From positions 1 to 64,000 of the forward strand of contig NZ_VICB01000003.1 of NCBI RefSeq assembly GCF_006546835.1: a DNA stretch of 64,000 bases. Direction: 5' to 3'. Positions 12,991 through 31,087 of the stretch are shown here, piece by piece (the stretch's first letter is position 1; every line of letters starts with the position of its first letter). The DNA comes from Actinomyces johnsonii (GTDB lineage Bacteria > Actinomycetota > Actinomycetes > Actinomycetales > Actinomycetaceae). Under the pieces are notes generated by a model, which saw only the letters and a program-made list of their open reading frames with translations, had not been told where the DNA came from and searched no databases. The translations under genes and the position numbers were made by a program.

Positions 12991-13000
12991 GGAGTCGACC

Positions 13001-16000: not shown

Positions 16001-17608
16001 AGTCCGTGGCTGCCGCCGCTGCCCGGGCTGCTCACCCTGGATGAGGTGGAGCAGCGGATGGAGGAGCCCGGGGCGGACTCGCGCGCAGAGGGCTTCCTGC
16101 CGGCCCTGCCCCTGGGGCTGGAGGATCTGCCCGCAGAGCAGGATCAGCGGCCCATGACCTGGGACTACACGCGTGCCGGGCACCTGGGGATCGCTGGTGG
16201 CCCCAGGGCGGGGCGCTCCAGCGTCCTGCGGGGGATCGCGGTGGCGGTGGCTCGCGCGGCCTCGGCCGCGGAGGTCCACATGTACGGGATCGACGCCGGC
16301 AACGGGGCGCTGCTGCCGTGCCTGGCGTTGCCGCACGTGGGGGCGGTGACGACCCGCGACCAGCCGGACCGGGTCCGGCGCCTGCTGGGACTGCTGGGCC
16401 GGGAGGTGGCGCGCCGCCAGCAGCTGCTGGCCACCCAGGGCTTCGCCTCGCTGTCCGAGCAGCGGGCCAAGGCGGCCGAACCGGAGCGGCTGCCCTACCT
16501 GCTGCTGCTCATCGACCGATGGGACAACTTCACGGCCACCTTCGACAATGTCGATGGCGGGGCCGTCATCGAGGGCGTGGAGAGCCTCATGCGCGAGGGG
16601 CCCGCCGTGGGGTTGCGCGTGGTGGTCGCCGGGGACAGGACCGTGTTCCGGGGCCGGTTCGGGATGCTGTTGGAGGACCGGCTGCTGTTGCGGATGCCAT
16701 CTCCGGACGACTTCGACCTGGTGGGCATGAGGGCACGCGAGGTGCCGCTGACCATGCCGCAGGGCCGGGCCTTCCGCAGCGGGCCCAGGCCCCGCGAGGT
16801 GCAGCTGGCGCTTCTGACGGCCGACGTCGACGGAACCGCCCAGGTGGAGGCGATCCAGGAGGCGGGGCGGCTCAGCCACAAGAAATGGGGAGAGATCCCC
16901 CGCGCGCTGTCCGCGGGCCACGTGGACGAGCTCCCGGTGGCGATCTCCGAGGAGAAGGCACTCGAGCTCGGGCCGCCGCTGGCGCCGGGGAATATCGCCC
17001 TGGCCGTGGGCGGCGACGACCTGGGGCTCATCCCCGTGTCCATGGACGAGATCGGCAACGGGGTGTTGGTGGCCGGGCCGCGGCGCTCCGGGCGCTCGAC
17101 GGCGCTCATGTTCGGTGCGCAAAGGGCGCTGGACGGTGGGACGCGCGTGGTGCTGGTGCTGCCGCGGCGCTCGCCGCTGATCGCCCTGGAGAGACGTGAC
17201 GGGGTCCTGGGACGGTTGGGTCTGGAGTCCAAGCCCGATGATCTCAAGGCTCTTTTGAAGGATGAGCCTGACAACACGCTCATTGTTATTGACGACTTTG
17301 AGATTATGGGAGGCGATCATGCTCTTGGGCCCGTGATTGAGGAGCATTTGAGGACGTGCCGGGATGCGAATGGCGGTGTCCTGGTGGGCTGCGGAATCGA
17401 TGAGGTGGCGGGTATGTACCGGGGCGTGGTGGCCCAGGTGCGCAAGACCCGAACGGGTCTCATCTTGGCGCCCAGGTCTTCTGAGGATGGCTCGAACCTT
17501 TCGGCGAGGCTGCCGCGTTCCATCGGAGGTCCGGTTCCCAAGGGACGGGGCATCATGGTGACGGCCGGTGGCTGGTTGTGGGTGCAGGTGCCGAAAATCG
17601 ATAGTTAA
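13001..17608 (+). CDS. EssC/EccC-type FtsK/SpoIIIE ATPase of type VII secretion
   Basis: 1535 residues from ATG 13001 (GGAG just upstream). The N-terminal part (about 1-290) looks like two FHA-type beta domains, as in Firmicutes EssC. Two membrane helices follow at about 307-345, then a basic coiled linker. Three ATPase modules: module 1 has an intact Walker A GTTGSGKS (about 728-735), Walker B MIIIDEF (about 832-838) and TQRPAG; module 2 has a degenerate GGPRAGRS (about 1066); module 3 has AGPRRSGRS (about 1360). In EccC the first module drives transport and the last binds the substrate signal. Codon and base composition change abruptly near 17200, inside module 3, and the last roughly 135 codons have a near-identical partial copy at 22683-23109. 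No EccB, EccD, EccE or mycosin gene is visible in the window. Confidence 0.92.
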   Translation: MQLFISVLRPLEEASDARDLIIVVPEDAVVGDLAAALDRALPASAPGQSLRLVVSAGEPVDAPPSSLWHGPRRLDPQAPIGSGSIRNGMLLGLGAAVLDDVEPVGVVELRVIAGRGAGAVHRLSLGGYTLGGPEGDIALEGEAGREKIADLTVSQGGQVFLSPVPGVAERTVPLPLPRRRPLPGPLVLAAKEDEKPSKRRRRQKRRKRKGKAPEPILSGREVLEPDGQRHFLELDRRPLKGATFWPEKAVLTVGESLLVLSPVPAADAVTSPTPGAPTINFNRPPRLARPIRVTKFTLPREPEQPRKPPFPFAMMLSPLVMGAGMYLLTKRIYSLLFMVLSPVMMIANQIQGRSYNKKTYKDNLRKYEDQRDQAEDAAFKALTEERGLRRSDAPDPAELLLRATGPRAELWERRPADPDWLDLRVGVADLPSDVEVDDPARAKHEEPLRWTAPDVPVTVHLGELGVVGVCGDRCHEVATWLAAQAAVLHSPAELQMVLLVEPVRGENPAGRWAWARWLPHLRNLEGTGARARVGVDDESVGRRISELADLVQRRLEASDNRGSGRSENEQVLVVLDGGHALRLRPGLIPVLRRGPEVGVRLVCIDRERTALPEECRAVVATGPAAPSVSQTDVEEVERVTLDMVPDGWCERVARALAPVHDVSASGADSTIPTASRLLDVLPMPEPGSDAVLAAWQRCSRTTRAVIGEDAEGDFWLDVRADGPHALVAGTTGSGKSELLQTLIASLCVGNTPEAMTFVLVDYKGGAAFKDCARLPHTVGMVTDLDGHLTSRALESLGAELRRREHQLAGADAKDIEDYVAAMAPGDEPMPRLMIIIDEFAALVSELPDFVTGLVDIARRGRSLGVHLVLATQRPAGVVSAEIKSNTNLRIALRVTDESDSQDVIEAAASAFIPPSIPGRAYARLGHASLRQFQSSRVGGRPRGALPRAALRSATLTLDELSRPEEAPPEVEEDAAIPTDLATLVDAMGAAYRAMGKEKPHSPWLPPLPGLLTLDEVEQRMEEPGADSRAEGFLPALPLGLEDLPAEQDQRPMTWDYTRAGHLGIAGGPRAGRSSVLRGIAVAVARAASAAEVHMYGIDAGNGALLPCLALPHVGAVTTRDQPDRVRRLLGLLGREVARRQQLLATQGFASLSEQRAKAAEPERLPYLLLLIDRWDNFTATFDNVDGGAVIEGVESLMREGPAVGLRVVVAGDRTVFRGRFGMLLEDRLLLRMPSPDDFDLVGMRAREVPLTMPQGRAFRSGPRPREVQLALLTADVDGTAQVEAIQEAGRLSHKKWGEIPRALSAGHVDELPVAISEEKALELGPPLAPGNIALAVGGDDLGLIPVSMDEIGNGVLVAGPRRSGRSTALMFGAQRALDGGTRVVLVLPRRSPLIALERRDGVLGRLGLESKPDDLKALLKDEPDNTLIVIDDFEIMGGDHALGPVIEEHLRTCRDANGGVLVGCGIDEVAGMYRGVVAQVRKTRTGLILAPRSSEDGSNLSARLPRSIGGPVPKGRGIMVTAGGWLWVQVPKIDS

Positions 17609-17625
17609 TGAAAGGATAGAAATCA

Positions 17626-18021
17626 ATGCTCCCCAATGATGCTTCTGATAAAAGTGGTGAGAAGAAGTTAGTTCCAAATAGAAAGATCAACGCAATTTCA
17701 AAAGTAAAAGCCAGAGTCGACCAAGCGGTAGAAGTTATAGCCAAAAACCCTCAACTGGGAGTCGGTTTACCTGGAGGAGGTTCTCAGCGCTCGAAGGGAC
17801 ACATTTCTAGTATAGGGCAGTTCACGGCGACACTGTCCGACGCGTGGTCGTCATCTGCCGCGAAAAAGGAGGCTGAAGAGATTGAGTCTAAAGTTGGTAA
17901 AGCTCGCGAAATTATCGTCTCCGTTCAGGATCAGGTCGCAAAAGCTCTTTCCGAAGAGCAGAATTTGAGGCCGGAGGTCGAGGAGGGTAGCGATGAATCA
18001 TTGCCTAAGTGGGACGAGTAG
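17626..18021 (+). CDS. Small WXG-like helical partner of cassette 1
   Basis: 131 residues, predicted helical and charged, starting at ATG 17626 with AAAGGA upstream of the start. A basic N-terminus, a Gly-rich turn (GVGLPGGGSQ) and the motif DAWSSSAAKKEAEEIE place W-x-S at a helix turn, as in the small proteins of cassettes 2 and 3 and the Esx-like protein at 3526. The tail is acidic and ends PKWDE; the other two end with Lys/Glu-Trp near the C-terminus as well. It lies 17 bases after the ATPase gene and 57 bases before the large gene. I infer a secretion partner or chaperone, comparable in role to the Lap/WXG-like partners of LXG toxins; no family assignment is certain. Confidence 0.7.
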   Translation: MLPNDASDKSGEKKLVPNRKINAISKVKARVDQAVEVIAKNPQLGVGLPGGGSQRSKGHISSIGQFTATLSDAWSSSAAKKEAEEIESKVGKAREIIVSVQDQVAKALSEEQNLRPEVEEGSDESLPKWDE

Positions 18022-18078
18022 TGCACGTACAGCAGCGCAGTGATCTGCTAAACCGCAAAAATATCGAGGAGCAAAAGA

Positions 18079-20133
18079 ATGGTTTATGTAAGTCTGGATG
18101 TGGAAAAGCTTCTGAAGTTCGTGTCGTCATTGCAGGGCTGGGGAGATAAAGCGATGCAGGAAAGTGACGAGATCAAAAAACTTAACGAACATTGGGATCC
18201 TCCAGCCGTAAAGAGTATCGGATCGGATACAAACCCGGGCGACCCAACATCCGGAGATGCAAGTGGACTGGCATCAGTGCGATCACTAGGAGACTATCTA
18301 AGTAGAATTATTGCAACAGATCTCAAAAGGCGCTGCAAGGAAGCGCAGCAAATGAACTCTGACGGTATCTTGACCAAGACTCCCGAAGGTAGACTCACCT
18401 ATTTTCTTCCAGATGACGCGGAGGATACGGCTGCTAACGTCGAAAAAAACAATACGGAAGCAGCGAAAAAGGCTAAACAACATGCCGAGGAGCTCGGAGA
18501 TATCGATAGACCTGGAGGGCGCTCATCACGGGGGCGGCACCGCACGAGCGGGGAAATTATTGATGATATGGAAGAAAACAAAGACAATCCAGTGTACGGA
18601 AACGTATTTTTGAAAAGCATTCAGCCTGATAAATTTATACGCTTGTATAAAACTCAAAAGGTCATATACCCAAAGACTAAATCGATATTTTCCCACATTC
18701 TAGCGAGCGCTAGTCAAATTGAAGAGAATGGCCTTGATCTGGCTACGACATTCACTAACGGTCTCCAAATTGGTAACCCAAGTAATAGCGATCAGTTCGA
18801 GAACCTGGCCACACTGAATGAGATGCTTCACGATGAAACAACCAAGTTTGGTACAAATTTCCTGATAAATATGGGTGACAATACTAGATTTGCTTATCCC
18901 AAAGATGCGAGCAAATACCCTTCGCAAGAGTATCACTCGCCACTTAATTTTGATGTACATAATGGAGTACTAAGCGCCATGGGGCGTAACCCTGTAGCGG
19001 CTACGAAGTATCTATATGGAGTAGATCACAATGGAGTATATAATAAGGAATTAGCGAAAGCAAGATGGGGCGGACTTAAAAATCGAGAAACGCTCGATCA
19101 GGAAGACGCTACTTCTGCAATGAAGGCCGCGTCCACGCTTAGGACGGATAAGGATTATGGTGAACAGGCAACTAGAGTGACTGCGCTATCGTTGAAATAT
19201 GCGGCAGATAATATTCCAAAATCGCAATATACTGATCAGGTTAAAAAGAATGTCTCCGTTATGGTTGCTAACTGCCCTGAGGAGGTTCATAATATTGCTA
19301 ACGGTCAACAAATCAAATCGTCCCTGCAAATCCCGATGCCTGAAGGTTCGGAAGGTGCGGAAGCTCAGATGAAAGTTAACAGAAACACCATTTCAACTGT
19401 GATATATAACGTCATAGATAACAAAGATGCTGCAGTCACTATTTCGTCGGTAGTTGGCCACCATGCGATTGATAACAAAAGTAATATGGGTACCATTGAC
19501 GGGTTGGAGGCTAAGTATAGAGAGGCTGGGGCAGATCTTGGTTACTTAGAACATATTGCTAACATGCGTTTTAATGATAATAAGGAGGACAAACAGAATG
19601 CTAAAAATACTTCGGATGCTGTTGGGGGGGCATTTCGAACAGTCATTGGCTCACTATTGCCGAAAGGCTTCGATATTGCATGGAGCATAGGAACTTCTAT
19701 TGCTGATGCTGTGGACGCGAACAATCTTAAAGACAAAAATGGCAATAAGATTGATGTAGACAATGTTCCTCCTATCTCGAATGAGGAGTATCTAAAAAAC
19801 CTAGCAATTACAGAAGCCGTCAATACCGGACTGATGAAAGCTGAACCAAACGTCTCAGTTCCGCAAACAATTAGCAAGGAAGAAGATGGGGTTGAAACTT
19901 CGACTGTAACTGTAAATATTACCGATAGTGAAGGTAGAGTCATCATACCAAACGAATATGATCCGACATATGGCGCTGCTCTCGATAGTTTTAAAACGAA
20001 GTTAGAAGGGTCGGAAAAAAAGTTGTCTAATGCTATTGATGACGTCGATGAGGGATCGGACGGTGCCAAGAAGAGGTTTGCTGCGGGGAATGATGTCAAT
20101 GCTGGAGGGATCGTGATTTCAAAAGGAAGATAA
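18079..20133 (+). CDS. Large candidate T7SS substrate, cassette 1 (DUF6571-like)
   Basis: 684 residues with AGGAG 7 bases before ATG 18079. The N-terminus MVYVSLDVEKLLKFV is shared in pattern with the large proteins of cassettes 2 and 3, as is a block at about 90-125 (a Glu/Asn-rich helix, GI, then G-x4-Y-x2-PDD). The middle is helical. Around residues 510-540 a Gly/Val/Ile-rich hydrophobic stretch (GGAFRTVIGSLLPKGF) occupies the same place as hydrophobic stretches in the paralogues. The C-terminus ends GGIVISKGR, near to RGIVIDKS in cassette 2. The protein resembles actinobacterial proteins I know as DUF6571, but I cannot confirm this. No enzymatic motif seen. Much AT-richer than the upstream ATPase gene. 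Position suggests it is exported by the adjacent T7SS; toxin activity is speculation. Confidence 0.72.
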   Translation: MVYVSLDVEKLLKFVSSLQGWGDKAMQESDEIKKLNEHWDPPAVKSIGSDTNPGDPTSGDASGLASVRSLGDYLSRIIATDLKRRCKEAQQMNSDGILTKTPEGRLTYFLPDDAEDTAANVEKNNTEAAKKAKQHAEELGDIDRPGGRSSRGRHRTSGEIIDDMEENKDNPVYGNVFLKSIQPDKFIRLYKTQKVIYPKTKSIFSHILASASQIEENGLDLATTFTNGLQIGNPSNSDQFENLATLNEMLHDETTKFGTNFLINMGDNTRFAYPKDASKYPSQEYHSPLNFDVHNGVLSAMGRNPVAATKYLYGVDHNGVYNKELAKARWGGLKNRETLDQEDATSAMKAASTLRTDKDYGEQATRVTALSLKYAADNIPKSQYTDQVKKNVSVMVANCPEEVHNIANGQQIKSSLQIPMPEGSEGAEAQMKVNRNTISTVIYNVIDNKDAAVTISSVVGHHAIDNKSNMGTIDGLEAKYREAGADLGYLEHIANMRFNDNKEDKQNAKNTSDAVGGAFRTVIGSLLPKGFDIAWSIGTSIADAVDANNLKDKNGNKIDVDNVPPISNEEYLKNLAITEAVNTGLMKAEPNVSVPQTISKEEDGVETSTVTVNITDSEGRVIIPNEYDPTYGAALDSFKTKLEGSEKKLSNAIDDVDEGSDGAKKRFAAGNDVNAGGIVISKGR

Positions 20134-20599
20134 TGGTTGATGGGTTGCTGCGGTGAGAAGAGGAGTGCACGTCGGGGCTTGGCGTGATCCAACTGCACAA
20201 AGAATCCGTGCGGCGATGATGAAGGTGTCTAAGTTATTCCCATTAACGGCGAAGTCATGGCGTCGATGTCGTCTTCCAGCGCGATCGCCTTGTCATGGCA
20301 GGCTGTGGCTCGGGTCCTCAAGGACGTGGCCGGTCTCAGGGATTGGCGGTATATGTGTCACAGTCGGGCCACGATCCTGTCGCTGGCCGTGGTCGACGTG
20401 CCAGCCGGCTGTCGTACCTGAACGGCGGTCTGGGGGTGGTCGCAACGCTACCTACCTAACCGTCTTGCAGGCTCCACTTGCAAGATAGTCAGGTTCCGCT
20501 CATCAACTGGACCACTCGCCGCATACCTTAGATCCGGATACTTTTTCAGTGCTACGTGGGGCAGCGGGGGAGGGTAGCCCGATTATCGGCTGCCCGCCC
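20134..20599. other. Spacer after cassette 1
   Basis: About 470 bases with GC content returning toward the chromosome average. Short open frames exist, but none has a convincing start or resembles a known protein. No hairpin terminator stands out. It joins cassette 1 to the tetR fragment. Confidence 0.4.
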
Positions 20600-21003
20600 T
20601 TATCTCCTCCAGTCGCCCAGGGCTCCTTCCAGGCAGCCCAGGGTCGCGTCGATGAGGCTGTGGCGCTGGTCGTCGGGGCAGCCTGCGTGCACCCAGCGCA
20701 GGCAGGCGTCGTCGAGGAAGCCGAGGTAGCCCCACAGGGCGAAGTCGTCGCGGTGGCCCCGGCTGCCGCCGACCACTTCCGCCAGTGCCGCCACCGCCGC
20801 CTCTCGCGCCTCCCGCCTGACCCGGGCTGCCTCGTCTCCCGGGTCGTGACCGGCCAGCACCTGGTAGGTCACCCAGCCGGGGGAGCGCTCGGCGATGAAG
20901 TCCAAGTAGGTCAGCACCGAGGTCCGCACCCGGTCCCGGGCCGACGATCCCTCCGGCAGGGCGTCGTCGGCCCGACGGGTGCGCTCGGCGAGCTCGTCGG
21001 TCG
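20600..21003 (-). pseudogene. 3' fragment of a tetR gene (copy of the gene at 31174)
   Basis: On the minus strand this encodes about 134 residues matching the C-terminal two thirds of the TetR protein at 31174-31788: shared blocks include LPEGSSARDRVR, VLTYLDFIAERSPGW, VGGSRGHRDDFA and GCLEGALGDWR. Homology stops at DELAERT, so the DNA-binding helix-turn-helix is missing and unrelated sequence is joined upstream. The stop is TAA at 20600-20602, where the intact gene ends in TAG. It marks the right-hand edge of a duplicated segment. Confidence 0.88.
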
Positions 21004-22204
21004 TGGACTGTGGTAGCTGGGTGTTGAGATTGGTCTTGTCCGGTGAAGTGTCGGTGCCATCGGCGACCCTTGTTTGCTCCAGCCGGGAGCGCTCCTGGCT
21101 GAGTCCGGCTCTCTGGTGCACCAGGAGAGCAGTGGTGATGGCGGGCGTCATCGGTCTGAGCCTGGTTGGCGCTTCAGTGCGCGATGAAGATGATTGCGGC
21201 GCTTTCCAGTTCAAAGGCGTGGTCGACGGACCTGGCTGCACAATCGTCGAGGGGAATGTCTTTTATCGCTTTCAACCACGGCTCGGCCGAGGCGCGCGAC
21301 CCGACCGTCCCGGGGTGAAGTAAAGGGAACGCGTTACCAGATACGGGTGTTTCCGCGTGGCTTGCTAGTCGGGGGGAAGGGCCCCGAGCGGTCTCGTGGT
21401 AGCGGGTATTGAGCGGGTCGATCGCGTTATCCGTGTGCGAATGACACAGCGGGTCTCGGCGTCGTGCTCCGGGGAATGGCAGGAGCTTGCGCCCACGATG
21501 ACTTCGACAGCTGCACGATCGTGGAACTGGGACAGCGTCTTACCGAGGTGCACACCTTTGGCGAAGCGGTCTTTGGCCGCGGCCCTCGGACGGGGGCCGA
21601 GCAGACCGGCCTGGAGGGACCTTACGATCGCGTCGTGATGCCTCCCGCCGGCATAAGCGGGGGCTGTTGTGGATCGGGCACGACGCACTGCCGACGACCG
21701 TCTGCCGCCCAATGATACTCGATCCGTCTCCCACAGGCCCTTTCGGGGCCGTCGCGGACCGTGATCAGCGCATCTCGGCGCCCTAGGTTTCCCTTAGTTC
21801 AGAGAACGTATCCATGAAAACCATGGCTTAGTCAGGAAGGTGCCCGGCTCTCCTCGGCGTGGAGAACACCCAGGGGTGGGCAAGAGGCCCCGTGCCCTCG
21901 GCACCGTCGTCGGCCCGAAGGACCCGGAATGTTGCCTCCCCCCGTTTCCACGCTCACGCCTATGACCGCGTGGAAACACACGCGATGGGGCGTGGCGCAC
22001 CCGCCCGTGACGGACCTTTGAGCACAAGTGCATCGAGGAGGACCACCGGATGCGGCGGGTTCAACGCATCCGGTGGCATGCTCGCCCGCTGAAGCCGACC
22101 CGCCGGCCACCCTTCCTGCGCGAGTTCGGCTGATCGCATCCCTGCCAGGCACCGGGATGCCGTGGGAGTGCACGATGATCCTCCCCTGGGGCCAGGGCAC
22201 ATGC
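21004..22204. other. Gene-poor remnant region
   Basis: About 1.2 kb of high-GC sequence without a convincing intact gene. Overlapping short frames on both strands lack ribosome binding sites and mostly show amino-acid composition typical of random GC-rich DNA. A minus-strand stretch at about 22140-22353 (around PKPERQPGGVDRVVLS) resembles one at about 27480-27600 (PKRWLEGNNQVVLSTG), so an eroded gene shared by both regions is likely. Confidence 0.45.
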
Positions 22205-22682
22205 TTACGTGATAGTACGACCCGGTCGACGCCCCCGGGCTGCCGCTCCGGCTTGGGCACGATCACCGGATCGAACGAGCCATCCCAATCCCCGCAGGAC
22301 CCGCCGGAGCGATCTCGATGAGTACGGTCATTGGCCCGCACCCCGTTGCGCACGTTCGTACCCGCTCGGGCGGGTACGTCCGGCGCGGGCGGGGCCGGTG
22401 GGAAGCTCCTGGATGTTTGATCGCAGGATGGGGAGAACTGCCTTTGACGGGGCGAGCGCGGGTGGCGACGATATTTGCGAGCAGTCCTCCAGGTACTCCG
22501 GAAGGTGAAGTTGTTGCGGTGGCACCGACTACCGCAACAACTTCGCCAGTGCCGTCACGGTGGCTTCGTGCATCTCGTGTCTTAACCGAGCTGATTTGTT
22601 CGGTTTGCGCCATGACAATTTGGGATGTCAAACCGACTGACGGGGTATGTGTGCCGGTATTGCTGCAGTGTTCATTGTTGGT
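22205..22682. repeat. Diverged direct repeat ahead of ATPase-tail copy 2
   Basis: This stretch aligns in order with about 27495-28159. Shared landmarks are the GGTCATYGGCC.GC block (22324 and 27608), the GGATGGGGAGAAC block (22427 and 27944), CGAGCGCGGGTG (22452 and 27971) and an ACCGACTG..CTGCAG segment just before each ATPase-tail remnant. It shows that the duplicated unit extends upstream of the ATPase fragment. Confidence 0.7.
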
Positions 22683-23109
22683 TGTTCTGGAGAGGCGTGA
22701 TGGTACTGTGAGGAGGGTGGGGCTGGAGTCTAAGCCTGATGATCTCAAGGGTCTTTTGAAGGATGAGCCTGAGAACACGCTCATTGTTATTGACGATTTC
22801 GAGATTATGGGAGGCGATCATGCTCTTGGGCCCGTGATTGAGGAGCATTTGAGGACGTGCCGGGATGCGAATGGCGGTGTCCTGGTGGGCTGCGGAATCG
22901 ATGAGGTGGCGGGCATGTACCGGGGCGTGGTGGCCCAGGTGCGCAAGACCCGTACGGGTCTGATTCTGGCGCCGAGGTCTTCTGAGGATGGGACGTATCT
23001 GTCGGCGAGGTTGCCTCGTTCCACCGGGGGCGCGGTTCCCAAGGGCCGGGGCGTCATGGTGACGACGGCCGGCTGGTCCTGGGGAGTGACAAGCATATTC
23101 ACAAAGTAA
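22683..23109 (+). pseudogene. Copy of the 3' end of the EssC/EccC-like gene (tail copy 2)
   Basis: In frame, this encodes about 135 residues equivalent to the last part of the ATPase at 13001-17608, starting at VLERRDG and running through NTLIVIDDFEIMGGDH, the Walker B region of the third ATPase module. DNA from 22799 to about 22960 matches 17303-17464 with about two differences. The end diverges (SIFTK instead of VPKIDS) after a short insertion, yet an echo of the original gene end (GTGCCGA.AATCGA..., then GACTGAAAGGA) occurs at 23171-23204. There is no start codon or upstream ATPase module, so it is not a functional ATPase. Confidence 0.9.
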
Positions 23110-23485
23110 GGGGAATGTTGCCTGGAATATGTGAATGTGGGTGATCGTCATATCTCTAGAATAACTCCGCAAGTGCCGACAATCGACGAAGAGGACTGAA
23201 AGGAGAGTGCAACAAATAATAGTTCGTAACTGCTTGAATCGATGGGAGAATTTTAGGAAAATCAAAGTAGCCGTCGGTGTAGCGTTGTCGATTGAAATAC
23301 GAGGGTAGGCAGGAATACTGCAGAAGTTGATAGAATCGGAGAAAATTAACGAAAACCTATTCTAAGAGTAACAGCGTCGACTATCAGCAGACCTCAGCCT
23401 CTGGCGTTTAATTCACATAAATGTTGATCTCGATGCGATATCTATGCATCTATAGAATTCTTCTTCGCGAGGATCAAACTATCTT
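23110..23485. other. AT-rich leader of cassette 2
   Basis: About 375 bases of AT-rich sequence after the ATPase-tail copy. The part near 23415-23430 (TCACATAAATGTTGAT) matches 28500-28515 before cassette 3 (TCACTCAAATGTTGAT), so the leader is conserved between cassettes and may carry the cassette promoter. No -35/-10 pair is convincing enough to place. Confidence 0.45.
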
Positions 23486-23866
23486 ATGAGTGCAACACCC
23501 GAACCAAAACCTCCCGAGTCTACTAGCTATTTTCCGTCGCCTGAACTACCGTCACGTGAAAATAGGAAGAAGGTCGCATTACGATATGTACTTGATTCGA
23601 TTTCTGAAGCCGTACAGGATCTAGGAGCAGACTTTGTAGATACAGGAGCAGCGTCCCCATCCGAAAGTATTGTAAATGGTCTTGGCGGTGATGGGAGTGT
23701 GTGGAAGTCCACCCTAGCAGAAGAAATGCGCGCCGATATTACGGGAATAGTTAGAAAGATCACTTCATGTCTTTCTTCCGAAAAAGAGAAAGTCTCTGGT
23801 GAATGGAGTAATGAACCCGATCTCGTCGACGGTAATGACCCTAGAGGGAAATGGAGAACACAATGA
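23486..23866 (+). CDS. Small WXG-like helical partner of cassette 2
   Basis: 126 residues. A Pro-rich N-terminus (about 1-28) is followed by a helix beginning KKVALRYVLDSI, then GLGGDGSVWKSTLAEEMRAD, a Gly turn followed by W-x-S and an amphipathic helix as in WXG100-type hairpins. The C-terminus ends GKWRTQ. It is strongly similar to the cassette 3 small protein (shared LALRYVLD-type helix, ADF, SPSES, GLGG.GS.WKSTLA) and more distantly to that of cassette 1. The stop overlaps the ATG of the large gene by four bases, so the two are translationally coupled, which suggests a physical complex. Confidence 0.78.
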   Translation: MSATPEPKPPESTSYFPSPELPSRENRKKVALRYVLDSISEAVQDLGADFVDTGAASPSESIVNGLGGDGSVWKSTLAEEMRADITGIVRKITSCLSSEKEKVSGEWSNEPDLVDGNDPRGKWRTQ

Positions 23867-25935
23867 TCCATGTTTCTCTTGATCCCGAGGGCCTGCAGAG
23901 AGTAATTACTGGTCTCTCGAACTACGGGACTAAAGCACGGGAATGTCGCGAGTCCGTAAAGAATACTAACGACCGCAACGATTCTCCAACTGATCTCGCT
24001 TCCTCATTAGATATCATTTCAGGCTCAGCCGACGCCTTGGAAGACAAAGCCAAGGATCTCCAGGCTCGGCTAGATTCCGCCAAAGCGGCTAACGAAAGTG
24101 GAATTACGCCGATGGGAGCGGACGGGACAATTTCTTACGTAATCCCAGAAGGACTAAATGATACAGCTGATACTGTGCTTCGGTATAATCACGTCGAAAT
24201 AGTTAATCAAGCTAGGGCGGATGCTGCTGCGCTTTATCAGGCGAAGAACTCTTTGAATGGACGTTCCGACGATGGGCGAACATTTAATGAAATTCTCGAA
24301 GGAATGAGTAGGCTGTGCGATAGTCCTATATATTCTGTGGGGCTGATAACCGTGCTAGGGAAACAATCTCCTCTCACGGAGGCAGATTTTAATAAGAGCG
24401 GATCTAAGCGATTTCTCGAGATTATGCAGATGGTTAATGAATCGCATATTCCTGAGATCTTGAGCCCGGGATTTGAAAACTTATCTCACGTCCTAGCTTC
24501 TGCCTCTCGAAGGGGAAATGGCGGAGCCGAGTTTGCAGAGGAAATTTATCAAGCTAGTAGCTCGGATTATGCGGCTCGACTTTCCCTTAATGCTGCTCTC
24601 TCTGAATGTTCGGCGCCTTTTGGCTCCGATTTCCTTACACATCTGGCTAGCGCGTATGAGAAGGATGACGCCAACAGGTTTAAACAGTACTCACAGTATA
24701 TTAACCACACTGAGTATAATTGTGATGTGCTTGGAGGTGTCCTTCAAGCTATGGGAAAGAATCATGAAGCGGCAAGAAAATACTTAGGTGGTGAGGGAAG
24801 AATTGGTAGCGATGGAGGATGGATACCCAGTGACGAAATGAAGCAGCGATGGGAGCTACTGAAACATCGAGAATGGAATGCGGCCGGACGGACTGGTTTT
24901 ACAGCCGCGATGGCTGGTGCAGTTCCGGATCGAAATCTTTCAAATGACCCTGGTGAGAAAGCTCGAGCGACCTGGGTGGCCGGCCAGTCTCTTGATTATA
25001 GCGCAAGTGTGAAAAAAGACGACTACACTGATGATATGAAAAGAAATCTTTCGGTTGTACTCGCGAACTGCAGAGAAGAGATACATAGTGTTGCCAACGG
25101 AAAGGGTACATTGGGGCTGAGTTTTCCCGGAAACCCCGATCCAGCGAATCCAGATAAATATGGTAGAAATACATTGGCGACGGTTCTGTATCGGGTAATG
25201 GATAATCAAGATGCTGCTACTACTATTTCCGCGGCTGTCTCAGACTATGCTTTGAATATAGTTCCCGATCCGGATAATATGGGTGGACTTAATGAAAAGT
25301 ATATTTCCGCTGCGAATGATACGGCTTTTCTTAGAGACATCTCGAATCAGCGAGCAATAGATAACAATGCTACACAGAATGAAAAATACAAATTAGCTAA
25401 TACGATCAGCTCTGTTGCTATAGCTGTAGGCGGGGTTGCTCTCGGGGTTGCTACTGATGGAGTTGCGGCTCCACTTGCATACGCTGGAACAACAGCACTT
25501 GTTAAGTCTCTGAGTGCAGATGTGGTGGGTAAAGAAATGGGAACGGACGTGTCAGTGCAACCGGAAGTTACCGATGCAGAGTATTTGGAGACCAGGCAGG
25601 TGACGGAAGCAGTCAACCGAGGCTTCGTAGCTGCCCCCGTCGATAGCCTATATGACAGTAGGGGGCAGCTAATCAGCCGAGAGGAATATGACAGAAGGAA
25701 CGAGGATCCTTCTGAGAATTATAGCGGCATGAAGATCACCGATAAGAATGGTCATGTTGTTCAACCTGAGCGTTATAATGTTACCTTCCGTGACGGGGTC
25801 ACTGAACTTAAGGATCAGATTAACAATCCTGAACTCAATCAAGGCGTGAAGGCCACTCGGGATGAGGCTGAGAATCTTAAGGAGCGCTTTGGTGAAAAGG
25901 CTAGAAGTCGAGGAATCGTTATTGATAAATCGTGA
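23863..25935 (+). CDS. Large candidate T7SS substrate, cassette 2 (DUF6571-like)
   Basis: 690 residues from ATG 23863, chosen because it overlaps the upstream stop exactly as in cassette 3 (an in-frame ATG at 23851 exists). The N-terminus MIHVSLDPEGLQRVI and the block DLQARLDSAKAANESGITPM at about 68-87 are nearly the same as in cassette 3. The middle is helical, with motifs also found in cassette 1 (VLQAMGKN, LANCREEIHSVANG, NMGGLNEKY). Residues about 515-545 form a Gly/Ala/Val-rich hydrophobic stretch (AIAVGGVALGVATDG), a possible membrane-inserting segment. The C-terminus ends RGIVIDKS. No cysteine-protease, nuclease or NADase signature seen. Low GC relative to the chromosome. Function as a secreted effector is inferred from context. 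Confidence 0.75.
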   Translation: MIHVSLDPEGLQRVITGLSNYGTKARECRESVKNTNDRNDSPTDLASSLDIISGSADALEDKAKDLQARLDSAKAANESGITPMGADGTISYVIPEGLNDTADTVLRYNHVEIVNQARADAAALYQAKNSLNGRSDDGRTFNEILEGMSRLCDSPIYSVGLITVLGKQSPLTEADFNKSGSKRFLEIMQMVNESHIPEILSPGFENLSHVLASASRRGNGGAEFAEEIYQASSSDYAARLSLNAALSECSAPFGSDFLTHLASAYEKDDANRFKQYSQYINHTEYNCDVLGGVLQAMGKNHEAARKYLGGEGRIGSDGGWIPSDEMKQRWELLKHREWNAAGRTGFTAAMAGAVPDRNLSNDPGEKARATWVAGQSLDYSASVKKDDYTDDMKRNLSVVLANCREEIHSVANGKGTLGLSFPGNPDPANPDKYGRNTLATVLYRVMDNQDAATTISAAVSDYALNIVPDPDNMGGLNEKYISAANDTAFLRDISNQRAIDNNATQNEKYKLANTISSVAIAVGGVALGVATDGVAAPLAYAGTTALVKSLSADVVGKEMGTDVSVQPEVTDAEYLETRQVTEAVNRGFVAAPVDSLYDSRGQLISREEYDRRNEDPSENYSGMKITDKNGHVVQPERYNVTFRDGVTELKDQINNPELNQGVKATRDEAENLKERFGEKARSRGIVIDKS

Positions 25936-26090
25936 ACCTTAGTCACGTAATAAAATGATCGGTCTCTGACTCGGGAGAATTTGAATGATCGCTACGTCGG
26001 ACAACTTCCCCTCTTAAAGATGCAGGGCCAGTGTGGTCAGTCGAGCTCGGATACTTAACGCGGTGTTCGTGCCCGCTCTCACGCTCTCTG

Positions 26091-27214
26091 GTGTCGCGTG
26101 TTGTTAGTTGTTTTGTGGTTGGTGTTTAGGATGATGGGGGGTATGGCGAATAGGCCTGCTCCTGGACTGGTTCTGCGTGAGGGTGACCTGGAGGTGCTCG
26201 AGTCCTGGCTGCGTGCCACGACGGTGCCGGCTGGTTTGGTGCGGCGGGCGCGGATCGTGCTCCTGGCTGCTCAGGGGGTGGCTAACAGTCGGATCGCGCA
26301 GGCGGTGGGGGTCAGCGTCCCCACGGTGGTCTCCTGGCGGCGCCGTTACCAGGCCGGGGGTGTGCGGGGGCTGGAGGACGCGCCCCGCTCGGGGCGTCCC
26401 AGGCAGGTGCCTCGGGAGCGGGTCGTGGCCGCTACCTTGGCGCCACCTCCCAAGAGGTACGGGGTCACGCATTGGTCGAGCCGGCTGCTGGCCCGTCACC
26501 TGGGCATCGGCAACGCCACCGTGGCGCGGGTGTGGCGCAGCTATGGGATCCAGCCCTGGAGGTCGGGGACCTTCAAGTACTCCACCGATCCCGAGCTGGT
26601 CGCCAAGGTCACCGACGTGGTGGGCCTGTACCTGGCACCCCCGGACAACGCCGTGGTGCTGTGCGTCGACGAGAAGTCCCAGATCCAGGCCCTGGACCGC
26701 ACCGCCCCGATGCTGCCCATGGCGCCGGGCAGGATCGAGCGGCGCACCCACGACTACACCCGGCACGCCACCTCCACCCTGTTCGCCGCCCTGGAGGTCG
26801 CCACCGGCCGCGTCACAGCCGCCTGCAAGCCCCGCCACCGCAGTACCGAGCTGCTCGTCTTCCTGCGCCAGGTCACGCGCGCCTACCCCGACGACGAGCT
26901 GCACCTGGTGATGGACAACTACGCAACCCACAAGACCCCCGAGGTGCGCGCCTGGCTGGAGGCCAACCCTCGCGTCCACGTCCACTTCACCCCCACCAGC
27001 GCCTCCTGGCTCAACATGGTCGAGATCTTCTTCTCCGTCATCGACCGTGCGGCCATCCGCCGAGGAGTCTTCACCTCCGTCAAGGACCTCAACACCAAGA
27101 TCCGCGCCTTCATCAACGGCTGGAACCAGCGCTGCCACCCATTCACCTGGACCAAGACCCCCGATGAGACCCTCACCAAATGCCAACCAAAAACAAACTA
27201 ACAACACAAGACAC
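26091..27214 (+). mobile_element. IS630-family insertion sequence
   Basis: About 1.12 kb bounded by imperfect inverted repeats of about 33 bases: 26091-26123 and 27182-27214, sharing GTGTC..GTGTTGTTAGTT at the outer ends. One transposase gene fills the interior. The flanks CTGG and CTAG next to the repeats make the exact ends and the TA target duplication uncertain. High GC, unlike the cassette genes on both sides, so it is a later insertion. It lies between cassettes 2 and 3 and interrupts neither. Confidence 0.85.
26131..27201 (+). CDS. IS630-family transposase
   Basis: About 356 residues from ATG 26131 (ATG 26143 also possible; the frame is open back to GTG 26098 inside the terminal repeat). 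N-terminal helix-turn-helix (about 30-70: GVANSRIAQAVGVSVPTVVS), then a second winged-helix region with RLLARHLGIGNATVARVWR, then the DDE catalytic core: D in CVDEKSQ, D in MDNYATHK and E in NMVEIFFS, the typical IS630/Tc1 arrangement. The reading frame is intact, so the element may still be active. Confidence 0.93.
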   Translation: MMGGMANRPAPGLVLREGDLEVLESWLRATTVPAGLVRRARIVLLAAQGVANSRIAQAVGVSVPTVVSWRRRYQAGGVRGLEDAPRSGRPRQVPRERVVAATLAPPPKRYGVTHWSSRLLARHLGIGNATVARVWRSYGIQPWRSGTFKYSTDPELVAKVTDVVGLYLAPPDNAVVLCVDEKSQIQALDRTAPMLPMAPGRIERRTHDYTRHATSTLFAALEVATGRVTAACKPRHRSTELLVFLRQVTRAYPDDELHLVMDNYATHKTPEVRAWLEANPRVHVHFTPTSASWLNMVEIFFSVIDRAAIRRGVFTSVKDLNTKIRAFINGWNQRCHPFTWTKTPDETLTKCQPKTN

Positions 27215-27217
27215 TAG

Positions 27218-28159
27218 TGCGTGGCCAATCCTCAGGGGTGGGCGCGGAGGGGCTTACCCCTGTTGTTTGGACGCGCTGATTTCCGGCCTTTGGGATGGTG
27301 AGAGCGGGATGGTCTGAGCATGGCTAGGAAGAGCCATTCCGAGGAGCCTGCGGCATGAAGTGATGAACCTCTATGAGCCGATGCCGGGAGAGGTCTATAT
27401 GGTGTATCAAGCGGCTGCGGGGAGTTGTGTCGATGTCTGCGGATCGTAGGCACTTCCCGTGATCGGCCAGCGCGCGGCCGGTTGAGAGCACGACCTGATT
27501 GTTCCCCTCCAGCCAGCGCTTCGGCTTGGACACGAACACCAGCTCGAACGTATAATTCCGATCCCTTCCGGGCCTCGATCTCCATCGGGCTGATCTTGGT
27601 GAGCATGGTCATCGGCCTGCGCTCCGTTGCACGTATTCGTGCCTGTAGGGGCGGCCTTGCTCATGACCGAGGTGCTCGGTCATCGCCGCTTCCAAGGCTG
27701 TTTCGAGCACGTCGCTGGTGAGCAACCGCCCGCGCGACTCCCCTGATCAATGACCCCTCCAGGCGCAGGACCGATCATCGTCTCATCCACCGTCCCCGGT
27801 CGTGCCAGACACAGCCGTCTCCTCCCGGATCAGACCGACTTACAGCCCCTCTCCCGACAGGCATAGCCCCCGTTCGTACCCGTGGAGACTAACGTTCCCG
27901 GCGCAGATGGGGGTTGTCGGGAGCTGCGAGACGCCTGTTTGCGGGATGGGGAGAACTCCCATTGACGTGGTCGAGCGCGGGTGACCACGATGTTCGTGAA
28001 CATTCCTTCATATGTTCTCGGAAGGTGGATCCATCGCAGTGGCCTCGGTTGCTGTGGTCGGCTTCCGCCACGGTCGCTTCACGCGTCTAACGTCTCATCC
28101 GAGTCGCCTTGATCGGCTTGCGCTACGGCAGTTTGGGAGGCCAGACCGACTGCTGCAGT
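27218..28159. repeat. Remnant region and diverged direct repeat ahead of ATPase-tail copy 3
   Basis: About 940 bases without an intact gene. From about 27495 onward it follows the same order of landmarks as 22205-22682, with insertions. A minus-strand eroded coding stretch (VFVSKPKRWLEGNNQVVLS, about 27480-27545) has a counterpart at about 22230-22290. The whole looks like an older, more decayed copy of the spacer that precedes cassette 2. Confidence 0.6.
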
Positions 28160-28360
28160 GCGAGATCGATGAAGTAACGGGCATTACTGGCGAATGGCGA
28201 AGACTCGTACGGGACTCATTCTGGCACTGAGGTTCTCCGAGGATGGAACATATCCGTCGGTGAGGTATTTGCGCTCCACCGGAGTGCGGCCTTAAAGGGA
28301 CTGGACGCGATGGTGACGGTAGACGGCCGGTCCTGAATACGGACACCGAAAATCGACTAA
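28160..28360 (+). pseudogene. Decayed 3' end of the EssC/EccC-like gene (tail copy 3)
   Basis: Read next to the functional gene end (17395-17608), this segment keeps GAATCGATGAGGT-, ACGGGTCTCAT-, TCTGAGGATGG-, GATGGTGACGG- and CCGAAAATCGA-like blocks in the right order, ending in TAA at 28358-28360. Frameshifts, substitutions and a large internal deletion destroy the frame. It is the oldest of the three ATPase 3' ends and directly precedes the leader of cassette 3. Confidence 0.78.
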
Positions 28361-28589
28361 AAGAGAGAAGGTTACCAGTAATATAACAAGAGCGACTCTT
28401 GCTGATATAACTCAACGAAAGTTATTTGCGAGCGCAGTTATCTCCGATGCTCATTCAATTTAAAGGAGAGTGATTTCTATCTCGTGAATTAGCGTCAATC
28501 ACTCAAATGTTGATTGGCGCAAGCACAGAATGTAGCGACATGAACGATTGGATTCCTGGAACTCGATCTTGTAAGGGGTAAAGCGCATC

Positions 28590-28970
28590 GTGAGTGAACC
28601 AGAACCTTATCCGACACCGGGGCCAGCTCCCTATGAACTGCCAAATGACAAGTCGCAAGCTGTTAATAAGAAGAAACTGGCACTGCGATATGTTCTAGAT
28701 ACGATTGAAAAAGCTGCGACGGAGTTAGAGGCAGATTTTGCTGCCGCCGGAAAGAAATCCCCATCTGAAAGCCTTACAGATGGTCTCGGTGGTAGCGGTA
28801 GTGCATGGAAATCGACACTTGCCGACCAGTTGCGCACCGATTTTTCTGGTGTGATCAGCGATATTTGTTCGTGCATCTCTTCAGAAGAAGGGAAAGTTAG
28901 ATCTGAATGGAATAGCGAGCCTCAGTTTGTCGACAAAACCGATCCTAGAGCAGAATGGGGTAAGCGATGA
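28590..28970 (+). CDS. Small WXG-like helical partner of cassette 3
   Basis: 126 residues from GTG 28590 (AAGGGG upstream). Pro-rich N-terminus, helix KKLALRYVLDTI, then GLGGSGSAWKSTLADQLRTD with W-x-S at the turn, and the end AEWGKR. Close homologue of the cassette 2 small protein, with the same length and the same four-base overlap with the large gene. The W-x-S turn plus two helices is what links these proteins to WXG100 secretion partners; their secretion is inferred. Confidence 0.78.
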   Translation: MSEPEPYPTPGPAPYELPNDKSQAVNKKKLALRYVLDTIEKAATELEADFAAAGKKSPSESLTDGLGGSGSAWKSTLADQLRTDFSGVISDICSCISSEEGKVRSEWNSEPQFVDKTDPRAEWGKR

Positions 28971-31087
28971 CTTACATTTCACTCGATCCTAAGCGACTGC
29001 AGCATCTAATCACCAATCTCACCCGCTATGCGACTAGTTCATATAAACAGCGTGGATACGTGAAGCATGCCAACGAACTTCAATGTTATCCGACGGATCT
29101 CACTCAATTTCATAACAGAATTTCAAGCGCAGTCGGTTTCTTGGAAGAAAAAACCAAGGAACTCCAAGCTCGTCTGGATTCAGCTAAAGCCGCCAATGAA
29201 AGCGGTATCACCCCGATGGGGGCGAACGGGATGATTTCTTACTTCATTCCTGATGGCGAGGACGACACGATTAAAAACGCACTCAAGCACAATCATGTGG
29301 AAACGGTCAAACAAGCCAGGGCGGATGCTCAGAACCTCAAAGACTATTCCTTTCCACGTACTAGAAAGAAGTTTAGTCGCCCTAATGAGAGAATGCCTTC
29401 CGACGTAGAATGGAAGAGTCTGATTAAGAGAATGAAAGCCAATCAGGACGATCCTGTGTACGCCAATGCGTTTATAGCTAACATCAGTCCGAAGATTCTA
29501 CGCGACATTCCTGTTGATCGTTTCAAAGACCGAGACGCCAGGAAGATGGACGTCGTCCCTATAAAAGGATTATCGCAGCGACAGAGAAATGAGGCTACAG
29601 GTGTGCTCGGACCGCTTATCTCTACGGCTTCTAATACCTGGTCAAAAAGCAAAGCAAAGGATTATGCCGACCGACTTACTGAGGGTATAGATGGAAGAGG
29701 TGTGCTGGGCATTAATAAGATCTTCTTGTCGTCGCGAAATGTTGATATTGATGGGGATGGAAAGAAAGAGCGAGTTGGCTTAAAATATAACGATACTATG
29801 CTGGCAGCTGTCGCAAAAAAACTTGAACATTGGGATGGTTCTTCCGATCAATGGCGCCTATCGCCTGGAGGCAAGATATTTGGTATTGTCCATGCCATGA
29901 CTGGAAACACTAGTGCCGCTACAAAGTGGCTTGCGGTAAGGAAGTCTAGTAGCGGCGGCAAAGGGTCTGAAGGCGAAGTGGACGCTGAAAAGACAGCGGC
30001 CCGCACCAAGAAACTTGTCGAACAAAGTTCCATCGGGGATAACCAATGGACGGATGACTGGACGCTACTTGCAGCTCAGCAAGCAGTTTCAAGTAGCGAT
30101 GCTCCCTCTCATGGAGCTGCTCAGGCTGGAATCGTGTCGGGTGCCCTTAATGCTATTGGAGAAGATGATGTTAAAATTGAGCTGTCGGATAAGGCGAGAA
30201 ACGCTGCCTCCATCGCTATGTCGGCATATCCCTATGGTGTACAGCGGTCGGCTGAAACAGACGCTCCTCAATCGATGGTATCTGGCGAAATGGGTAAGTA
30301 TGGCTGGTCGAAGAATCTGCCCCGGCAACCATTACTGACAAACAAGGCACTCACCAACGTCCTTGGACAGATCGGCCAGAATGATTCAGCGCTTGCCCGC
30401 CTAACCGGATCTCAAGAGGCATTCAACAAAATGCAGATAAGTCCCGGAAATGTTCCTCAAGGGAACAGTCAGTATCTCAGTAGCACTTTAACATCGCAAA
30501 GTAGTATGCGGGGGTTCATGCAAGGGGCGATTGCTAGGCAAACAGAGATCTATAAGGCGGACGCCGATGCAAGAACGGCTGCCTGGGCTAACGTGGCATC
30601 GATGGCAGTTGGCGGTATTCCAGTACCGGGATTTAATCAGTTGGGCAAAACTCTTGAGATCGGCTCCAAATTCGCGGCGAACGTGGGCAAGAGTGCTGCC
30701 TCCGAAGGAGCCAAGAATGGGATAACTAAACTGTATGGCAGTCATCAACTGAAAGCCAAGGATAAGAATTCGGCGCTAAAGGCCGCCGGAGTGAACGCCA
30801 ATCGGCAAGTCTCGGGGATGGCGCTTCTTAAAAGCGGACTGTACTCTCAAGATGAACTGAAGGCCGTGGCCAAGATTCCAGGAGTTGATGTAGGTGAAGT
30901 GCTGACGCCGGACGGCGAATTAAAAGTCCACACAGGGGGGCCGTTGAAAGGAACTCAGTCGGAGGCGCTTATCCAGGTGGTCAAAAACTTGCCGGCAGAG
31001 AATCATGGGGCACTGAATAACGTCGATAAGAACATGTCTGATTCATACGAGTCTGCGTACGATGCGGCGCATGAGCAGCCGTACTGA
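28967..31087 (+). CDS. Large candidate T7SS substrate, cassette 3 (DUF6571-like)
   Basis: 706 residues from ATG 28967. The N-terminus MTYISLDPKRLQHLI and the ELQARLDSAKAANESGITPM block (about 69-88) match cassette 2. From about residue 130 onward it diverges: a charged region, then an unusual DVDIDGDGKKERVGL at about 260-274, which resembles a Ca-binding D-x-D-x-D-G loop. A hydrophobic Gly/Pro/Val stretch (VASMAVGGIPVPGF) lies at about 541-555. The last 100 residues differ from cassettes 1 and 2 and include a small domain with LTPDGELKVHTGG. The shared N-terminus with different C-termini is the pattern expected of a polymorphic secreted protein family. No immunity gene can be named. The next gene, tetR, is convergent. 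Confidence 0.75.
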   Translation: MTYISLDPKRLQHLITNLTRYATSSYKQRGYVKHANELQCYPTDLTQFHNRISSAVGFLEEKTKELQARLDSAKAANESGITPMGANGMISYFIPDGEDDTIKNALKHNHVETVKQARADAQNLKDYSFPRTRKKFSRPNERMPSDVEWKSLIKRMKANQDDPVYANAFIANISPKILRDIPVDRFKDRDARKMDVVPIKGLSQRQRNEATGVLGPLISTASNTWSKSKAKDYADRLTEGIDGRGVLGINKIFLSSRNVDIDGDGKKERVGLKYNDTMLAAVAKKLEHWDGSSDQWRLSPGGKIFGIVHAMTGNTSAATKWLAVRKSSSGGKGSEGEVDAEKTAARTKKLVEQSSIGDNQWTDDWTLLAAQQAVSSSDAPSHGAAQAGIVSGALNAIGEDDVKIELSDKARNAASIAMSAYPYGVQRSAETDAPQSMVSGEMGKYGWSKNLPRQPLLTNKALTNVLGQIGQNDSALARLTGSQEAFNKMQISPGNVPQGNSQYLSSTLTSQSSMRGFMQGAIARQTEIYKADADARTAAWANVASMAVGGIPVPGFNQLGKTLEIGSKFAANVGKSAASEGAKNGITKLYGSHQLKAKDKNSALKAAGVNANRQVSGMALLKSGLYSQDELKAVAKIPGVDVGEVLTPDGELKVHTGGPLKGTQSEALIQVVKNLPAENHGALNNVDKNMSDSYESAYDAAHEQPY

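What the first reader, a model, noticed from the sequence alone, without database searches (positions are those of the whole stretch)
17190..31087. T7SS cassette array: three substrate pairs, two behind copies of the ATPase 3' end
Three modules in a row have the same plan: a 3' piece of the secretion ATPase gene (complete gene, then copy 22683-23109, then eroded copy 28160-28360), a small W-x-S helical gene, and a roughly 690-residue gene of one family. Copy 2 keeps about two mismatches over about 160 bases with the functional gene end, while copy 3 has decayed. Since the third ATPase module of EccC proteins binds the substrate signal, carrying this tail along with its substrate pair would keep receptor and cargo matched. 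I infer a recombination-driven system that swaps the module joined to the live ATPase and stores older ones as orphans, comparable in logic to CDI/Rhs orphan tips.
Basis: partly seen in the sequence, partly recalled or inferred. Interest (0 to 1): 0.93.

Follow-up and report, generated by a model that had tools for sequence, protein, structure and literature searches.

The report
Stacked secretion-cargo cassettes in Actinomyces
An Actinomyces chromosome carries three different cargo gene pairs in a row at one secretion locus, with copied scraps of the neighbouring genes left between them, which looks like old cargo displaced by new cargo through recombination rather than cargo travelling with its own matched receptor.

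Summary
A T7SS-type ATPase gene (eccC) is followed by a small W-x-S gene and a DUF6571 gene. Two more such pairs follow, each behind a copy of the eccC 3' end (22651-23109; decayed at 28150-28360). In two A. oris-group relatives the same eccC and tetR-amylase flanks hold one different pair each. A 154-base tract of live and copied tail (2 mismatches) marks recent exchange. Module exchange and displacement between two homologous arms is well supported. Matched receptor and cargo is not: over 11 genomes the ATPase tail tracks the ATPase body (r 0.89), not the cargo (r 0.00-0.28), and the orphan tails lack the P-loop-like motif. What co-varies is the small protein with the N-domain of its large partner (r 0.67). 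Listeria truncated-essC modules and CDI/Rhs and T6SS arrays are close precedents, so this is a new variant. In passing: several relatives have membrane-anchored DUF6571 copies, without the N-domain, beside full-length genes; and the ATPase gene is linked to a Tad-type gene row.

The parts
12998..17608 (+). live T7SS-type FtsK/SpoIIIE ATPase gene (EccC/EssC-like), 1536 aa
   Evidence: Pfam PF01580 at 176 bits; best NCBIfam TIGR03928 at 530.6 bits, below its cut-off of 778.4
17298..17451 (+). tract of recent exchange between live tail and tail copy 2 (22799-22952)
   Evidence: 2 of 154 mismatches against 17 of 112 and 25 of 132 in the flanks; 14 of 154 against G021
17626..18021 (+). small gene s1 (131 aa, W-x-S)
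18079..20133 (+). large gene L1 (684 aa), DUF6571
   Evidence: PF20211, 188 bits
20588..21184 (-). tetR remnant alpha behind pair 1
   Evidence: tblastn 59.6% over tetR residues 3-203 at 20606-21184; blastn from 20588; DNA closer to the intact tetR of G040 (92.8%) and G021 (91.0%) than to the intact local tetR (89.1%)
21227..21313 (+). amylase gene scrap
   Evidence: 70.8% over 89 columns to 32300-32388
22210..22488 (.). degraded spacer, homologous to parts of 27483-28018
   Evidence: 64-68%
22489..22645 (-). tetR scrap beta (same orientation as the intact tetR), ends where tail copy 2 begins
   Evidence: 75.5% over 106 columns to 31296-31401
22651..23109 (+). eccC tail copy 2, open in the eccC frame from 22687 to a stop at 23109, last residues changed, without the P-loop-like motif
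23486..23866 (+). small gene s2 (126 aa)
23851..25935 (+). large gene L2 (694 aa), DUF6571; DNA similarity to L3 and to G040 stops near 24225 (about residue 125)
   Evidence: PF20211, 288 bits
26098..27201 (+). DDE_3-type transposase gene between pairs 2 and 3
   Evidence: PF13358, 82.6 bits
27483..28150 (.). degraded spacer with tetR scrap gamma (28021-28150), homologous to parts of 22210-22639
28150..28360 (+). eccC tail copy 3, decayed, with a deletion and stops
28590..28970 (+). small gene s3 (126 aa)
28967..31087 (+). large gene L3 (706 aa), DUF6571
   Evidence: PF20211, 445 bits
31174..31788 (-). intact tetR, right recombination arm
   Evidence: PF00440, 42.5 bits; syntenic in G021 and G040
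31827..33140 (+). alpha-amylase-family gene, right flank
   Evidence: PF00128, 125 bits; about 91% protein identity in G021 and G040

Best explanation
This is a cargo-exchange site of a T7SS-type secretion locus. The 3' end of eccC is one homologous arm and tetR-amylase is the other. Incoming DNA from relatives recombines in these arms and puts a new small-gene/large-gene pair next to the live ATPase gene. On some occasions the right-hand join was not clean, so the earlier pair was not replaced but pushed downstream. It then sits behind a scrap of tetR fused to a scrap of eccC tail. The scraps mark past joins; they are not carried receptors. The pairs are probably secreted effectors in which the small W-x-S protein partners the N-terminal domain (about 120 residues) of the large protein, as Lap proteins do for LXG toxins, while the large body is separately exchangeable. 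Shown: shared arms, unlike cargo, tract of recent exchange, no tail-cargo covariation, small-protein/N-domain covariation, intact orphan ORFs beside decayed scraps. Inferred: secretion by this ATPase, effector role, order of events, donor of pair 1, and that orphans can return to the live position by recombination between tails.
For: G021 against G040, both arms are 93-94% identical in DNA while the cargo bodies are 16% identical. Tail copy 2 is about 89% identical to the live tail although L1 and L2 are only about 31% identical. A conversion-like tract links live and copied tail. tetR remnant alpha is closer to the tetR of G040 and G021 than to the local intact tetR. The tetR-eccC joint recurs before both orphan pairs with about the same tetR-side end. 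G021 has an extra tetR scrap beside its intact tetR. L2 and L3 remain full ORFs while tail 3 has stops. The small protein tracks the large N-domain, r 0.67, P 0.0002; the large body tracks neither.
Against: No strain series was available: the genomes held are one per species, so no event was caught before and after. A second tail beside a full gene of this type was found in 1 of 49 genus genomes, so stacking looks rare; that search did not report tail copy 3 either, so older scraps elsewhere may have been missed. Outside the tract the live tail is not clearly nearer to any one lineage (right part: 27 of 132 against G021, 24 against G040; copy 2: 22 and 21), so the donor of pair 1 is not identified by the tail. 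Pairs 2 and 3 are about as similar in the small gene and N-domain (65.6% DNA) as the spacers and tail scraps are (64-74%), so they may stem from one old duplication. No immunity gene was recognised beside the three pairs. The small protein is matched by no Pfam or NCBIfam model.
Confidence: 0.66

Rival explanations
1. Receptor-cargo cassettes: the eccC tail moves with its pair because it recognises that cargo, and swapping it retunes the ATPase.
For: In S. aureus EssC variants differ in the C-terminal region, and EssC2-4 secrete EsxA but not EsxC (PMC5994694, abstract and start of the text seen). In Listeria truncated essC of another variant precedes its own substrates (PMC10327511, passages).
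Against: The tail follows the EccC body, not the cargo, over 11 genomes. Tails of the trio are 88-96% identical with unlike cargo. Orphan tails lack the P-loop-like motif and copy 3 has stops.
Confidence: 0.07
2. Plain tandem duplication followed by divergence in place, with no import.
For: A similar tetR-eccC joint lies before both orphan pairs. s2/L2 and s3/L3 share 65.6% DNA over 668 columns, like the decayed spacers.
Against: Pairs 1 and 2 show no DNA match while their tails are 89% identical. The L2-L3 match stops near 24225/29329, and G040 matches L2 to the same point at 73%. G021 and G040 hold other cargo between the same arms.
Confidence: 0.17
3. IS-driven patchwork: transposases between the pairs moved and duplicated fragments, and the eccC and tetR scraps have no role in exchange.
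For: A DDE_3 transposase gene at 26098-27201. Spacer DNA within 21342-22357 resembles short stretches elsewhere in G000, G002, G009 and G016, which could be an old IS.
Against: An intact transposase gene was recognised in one spacer only. The arms coincide with the locus flanks in relatives, and the tail shows an exchange tract.
Confidence: 0.1

Closest known systems
Truncated essC plus substrate modules in Listeria T7SSb (Bowran et al. 2023, PMC10327511; passages seen; Bowran and Palmer 2021 is not held, recalled)
   Same: A second, 5'-truncated ATPase gene without a start lies at the T7SS locus along with another set of substrate genes.
   Different: There the truncated copy runs from residue 771 and is of a different EssC variant matched to its substrates. 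Here only about the last 150 residues remain, there are two scraps, they are not a cargo-matched variant, and tetR scraps mark the other side.
EssC variants as specificity determinant in S. aureus (PMC5994694; abstract and start of the text seen)
   Same: Cargo genes linked to the ATPase gene vary.
   Different: No variant-specific C-terminus matched to cargo was found here.
Sequential displacement of T6SS effectors in Vibrio cholerae (PMC5361080; passages seen)
   Same: New modules are added at one site, older ones are pushed outward, and homology-facilitated illegitimate joins are proposed.
   Different: There immunity genes are retained and effectors lost. Here complete pairs are retained and no immunity gene was recognised.
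CDI/Rhs orphan modules (PMC3150448; passages seen)
   Same: An array of displaced modules behind the live gene with homology usable for reloading.
   Different: CDI orphans are effector 3' ends that generally lack starts, with an immunity gene. Here the homology lies in the secretion ATPase and the orphans are whole genes.
T7SSg and T7SSh next to Tad genes (PMC11217815; abstract and passages seen)
   Same: T7SS-type ATPase beside Tad-type genes.
   Different: Those are in Bacillota. This one is in Actinomyces; the word Actinomyces does not occur in that paper's held main text.

Membership tests
T7SS (EccC/EssC-type ATPase) | FtsK/SpoIIIE multi-ATPase protein of EccC/EssC type | tested here: met
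   PF01580 above its cut-off. TIGR03928 530.6 bits, TIGR03924 365.3, TIGR03925 299.4, all below their curated cut-offs, so a relative outside the curated EccC and EssC groups. PDB best hit 4nh0 at 1.6e-81.
T7SS (EccC/EssC-type ATPase) | WXG100 (EsxA-like) gene in the cluster | tested here: inconclusive
   The 99-aa ORF 3526-3825(-) matches TIGR03930 at E 0.0033, 17.6 bits, below the cut-off of 44.85; no Pfam match.
WXG100 superfamily (small genes s1-s3) | helical hairpin with W-x-G-type turn | tested here: inconclusive
   W-x-S invariant in 5 of 5. Helices 27-47 and 76-109 in a weak model of s2, pLDDT 65.5. Foldseek: 0 matches with E <= 0.001; EsxA/EsxB-type chains appear only at E 3.7-5.1 among the 50 listed of 116. 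No Pfam or NCBIfam match for s1, s2 or s3.
DUF6571 (PF20211) | profile match above gathering score over most of the length | tested here: met
   L1 188, L2 288, L3 445 bits, cut-off 27.
Listeria-type truncated essC module | ATPase 3' piece before a substrate cluster | tested here: met
   (that the pairs are substrates is inferred)
Listeria-type truncated essC module | tail belongs to a distinct variant that correlates with its cargo | tested here: not met
   (11 genomes)
CDI/Rhs orphan module | orphan is an effector 3' end lacking a start | tested here: not met
   s2, L2, s3 and L3 are full ORFs with starts
CDI/Rhs orphan module | cognate immunity gene beside each effector end | tested here: inconclusive
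   None recognised: 10 spacer ORFs gave no Pfam match at E 0.1; no ORF of 60 aa or more lies wholly between L3 and tetR, and of 28 ORFs in the three gaps 3 have a hydrophobic stretch above 1.6, of which one is antisense to the transposase gene and one overlies the tetR remnant.
T7SS substrate | secretion dependent on the ATPase | not testable with these tools
   needs an experiment

The most novel reading that the evidence does not exclude
The array is the cargo dock of an undescribed Tad-linked T7SS in Actinomyces. DUF6571 proteins are its polymorphic effectors, loaded by their W-x-S partner. The eccC tail and tetR serve purely as recombination arms. In relatives immunity is given by a membrane-anchored copy of the effector's own body, in which the secretion domain is replaced by a lipoprotein or transmembrane anchor.
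Probability: 0.3. Interest if true: 0.85.

Novelty: new variant of a known kind. Interest (0 to 1): 0.55.

Why it matters
It shows cargo turnover at a T7SS-type locus of Actinomyces with both recombination arms and successive join scars readable in one chromosome. It also separates two ideas usually held together: at this locus the ATPase C-terminus does not follow the cargo, whereas the small partner follows the cargo's N-terminal domain. That makes the question of what selects T7SS cargo testable here. The wider DUF6571 family, with anchored self-copies beside full genes in several relatives, is a candidate effector and immunity family for which the word search found no paper.

Tried and rejected
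Receptor-cargo matching: tested by Mantel and partial Mantel on 11 genomes, not supported. Of the 23 genomes with an EccC tail match at 41% identity or more, these 11 have a DUF6571 ORF after the EccC gene, both open. Left out: G014 (broken) and G033, G041 and G013 (no adjacent DUF6571 ORF), looked at; and G002, G004, G010, G017, G023, G028, G029 and G034, by the coordinates only (in fragmented assemblies such as G028 adjacency cannot be judged). G048's EccC is cut by the end of the stretch, and the ORF starts of the large genes of G006 and G032 run into the small gene. Small-protein identities are 11-51% and noisy, n is small, and the G021-G040 pair pulls on the small-protein/N-domain correlation.

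Plain duplication: rejected for pair 1 against pair 2, not excluded for the small gene and N-domain part of pairs 2 and 3.

Plasmid search with L2: no match. Large-protein profile against solved structures: nothing below E 0.16. Structure of L3 from 5 sequences: pLDDT 65.0, mostly helical; Foldseek 0 matches with E <= 0.001, best 8.8e-3 to a designed armadillo protein. Structure of s2: pLDDT 65.5, no significant match. Degraded spacer: no clear identity, only short matches elsewhere. Papers with the word DUF6571: 0 in the held library. Papers with Actinomyces oris and type VII secretion: 1, by its title on Clostridioides difficile biofilms (listing only). Searches listed no paper on a Tad-linked T7SS of Actinomyces among the rows shown (12 of 63 and 4 of 4). 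No search was made for papers on tail-cargo independence as such.

Full report
WHAT IS THERE. The live ATPase gene runs 12998-17608 (1536 aa). It belongs with T7SS ATPases but scores below the curated cut-offs of the EssC and EccC models. It is followed by s1 (131 aa) and L1 (684 aa), then two further pairs s2/L2 and s3/L3. All three large proteins are DUF6571 and the small ones share a W-x-S. Coding GC is 44-50% in the pairs and 72-73% in eccC, tetR and amylase.

THE SCRAPS. Tail copy 2 (22651-23083) and tail copy 3 (28150-28356) derive from the eccC 3' end. Behind pair 1 lies a tetR remnant and a scrap of the amylase gene. Before each tail copy lies a short tetR scrap, and the degraded DNA before the tails is shared between the two spacers, up to about the same tetR-side end. 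On the eccC side copy 3 starts about 230 bases later than copy 2, most simply through a later deletion (inference; independent joins are not excluded). Intact tetR and amylase follow pair 3. So the repeated unit is tail, small gene, large gene, tetR scrap.

RELATIVES. Of 49 genus genomes searched, this one included, G021 and G040 have the nearest EccC tails (88% each). The window aligns to both from about 4082 to the end of eccC at 86-87%, apart from a short gap near 10.3 kb, and again from tetR at about 90%, with mostly unlike DNA between. Each has one small/large pair there. G021's large protein resembles L2 (45.5%) and G040's resembles L3 (42%), but G040's first 167 residues or so are 62% identical to L2. 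DNA similarity between L2 and L3, and between L2 and G040, ends at the same point near 24225, about residue 125. So both whole pairs and large-protein bodies have been exchanged. G021 has an additional tetR scrap before its intact tetR, the kind of scar expected from an unclean right-hand join.

RECENT EXCHANGE IN THE TAIL. Live and copied tail differ at 2 of 154 positions in 17298-17451 but at 17 of 112 and 25 of 132 on either side; permutation P 1e-5. The block is not merely conserved: the live gene differs from G021 at 14 and from G040 at 15 of 154 there. tetR remnant alpha is nearer to the intact tetR of G040 (92.8%) and G021 (91.0%) than to the local tetR (89.1%), as expected if pair 1 came with its own tetR end. 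The right part of the live tail gives no such hint of a donor: 27 and 24 of 132 differences to G021 and G040, against 22 and 21 for copy 2.

IS THE TAIL MATCHED TO THE CARGO? Over 11 genomes with an EccC-small-large row, tail identity follows the rest of EccC (residues 600-1390; Mantel r 0.89, P 0.0002) and not the small protein (0.17, P 0.12), the large N-domain (0.28, P 0.06) or the large body (0.00, P 0.48). Partial values given the EccC body are -0.03, 0.16 and 0.15 (P 0.59, 0.18, 0.11). The small protein follows the large N-domain (0.67, P 0.0002) but not the body (0.07, P 0.29). The orphan tails begin downstream of the P-loop-like motif at 17075 and copy 3 has stops. This argues against carried receptors and for the small protein as partner of the N-domain, as Lap proteins are for LXG proteins (analogy from passages of PMC11217815, not a test here).

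ARE THE ORPHANS KEPT? L2 and L3 are full ORFs, and L3 is the best DUF6571 match of the three, while the tail scrap before it has decayed to about 64%. This suggests the orphan pairs are still under selection (inference; no rate test was done).

HOW COMMON? A second tail copy beside a full EccC of this type was found in 1 of 49 genus genomes, this one. The search did not report this genome's own copy 3, so decayed scraps elsewhere may have been missed. The other genomes with two or three matches show distant paralogues at 28-37% identity or, in G014, one broken gene in two pieces. G017 has only an EccC remnant and no DUF6571 match. G048 has several DUF6571 genes in a row and a single tail match; its second small gene has a different 5' part, and the 96% repeat covers the 3' part of the small gene and about the first 1 kb of the large gene, so a join can also fall in the small gene.

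NOVELTY. Truncated essC with a foreign substrate set is known in Listeria (PMC10327511, passages). Displacement arrays are known for T6SS (PMC5361080, passages) and CDI/Rhs (PMC3150448, passages). Not met in the searches (listings, partly capped): this Actinomyces locus, the two-arm scars and DUF6571 as cargo.

SEEN ON THE WAY. In 31 fetched stretches, scanned with my own profile, 41 DUF6571-type ORFs lack the N-domain; some are pieces of broken genes. Of 30 with at least 30 residues before the match, 27 have a hydrophobic segment there (19-residue mean of 1.6 or more); of 30 full-length proteins 1 has one in its first 120 residues. Many of these stretches were fetched because they held such ORFs, so the share is not a genus-wide rate. 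13 of 30 full-length genes are followed within about 1.3 kb by an anchored copy; for one anchored copy each, the neighbour is the best match among 51 full-length proteins in 10 of 13, and ranks 2, 2 and 7 in the others. This genome has 4 DUF6571 matches, all near full length, so no anchored copy was found in it.

The upstream Tad-type gene row (CpaB, CpaE, TadA, TadB, TadC, pilin, TadE, TadG-like, LysM-like; names partly by Pfam, partly recalled) is found in part or whole in 13 of 14 genomes with informative upstream sequence: the window, G021 and G040, and G022, G012, G033, G035, G006, G014, G041, G032, G031 and G002. G009 is the exception. Not counted: G048 (stretch cut), G013 (EccC match starts at residue 226, no match in the 2.3 kb before it) and G017 (remnant). 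G002's row and EccC lie on one contig, but the DNA between was not read. The WXG100-like gene at the head of the row was found in G006 and G002; most other stretches did not reach that far.

Noticed in passing
L075 (G048), L082 (G010), L094 and L111 (G004), L095 (G003), L096-L097 (G034), L098-L101 (G023), L104-L105 (G031), L110 (G033): Copies of DUF6571 proteins lacking the N-terminal domain carry a lipoprotein-like or transmembrane anchor instead, mostly beside the full-length gene and sometimes as a string: 27 of 30 with room for an anchor, against 1 of 30 full-length proteins; the neighbour is the best match in 10 of 13. Possible self-derived immunity.
   Followed up: partly
window 3526-12990 and the matching rows in relatives: The ATPase gene follows a Tad-type gene row (CpaB, TadA, TadB, TadC, pilin, TadE, LysM-like), found in part or whole in 13 of 14 informative genomes, with a WXG100-like gene at its head in the window, G006 and G002; perhaps an undescribed T7SS subtype.
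   Followed up: partly
downstream of the large gene in G022, G012, G035, G048, G009, G006, G032, G031: An ORF of about 215-280 aa with a hydrophobic start, often lipobox-like by eye, lies behind the large gene, directly or one ORF later; the three tested have no Pfam match. None recognised behind L1-L3. Immunity candidate.
   Followed up: partly
L075 (G048), 3478-12121 of the reverse complement: Several DUF6571 genes in a row; a 96% repeat covers the 3' part of the small gene and about the first 1 kb of the large gene, after which the large genes differ.
   Followed up: partly
G000:C20:10985-13162 (L081): A fourth DUF6571 gene elsewhere in this genome (744 aa open frame); its neighbourhood was scanned for DUF6571 only.
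   Followed up: no
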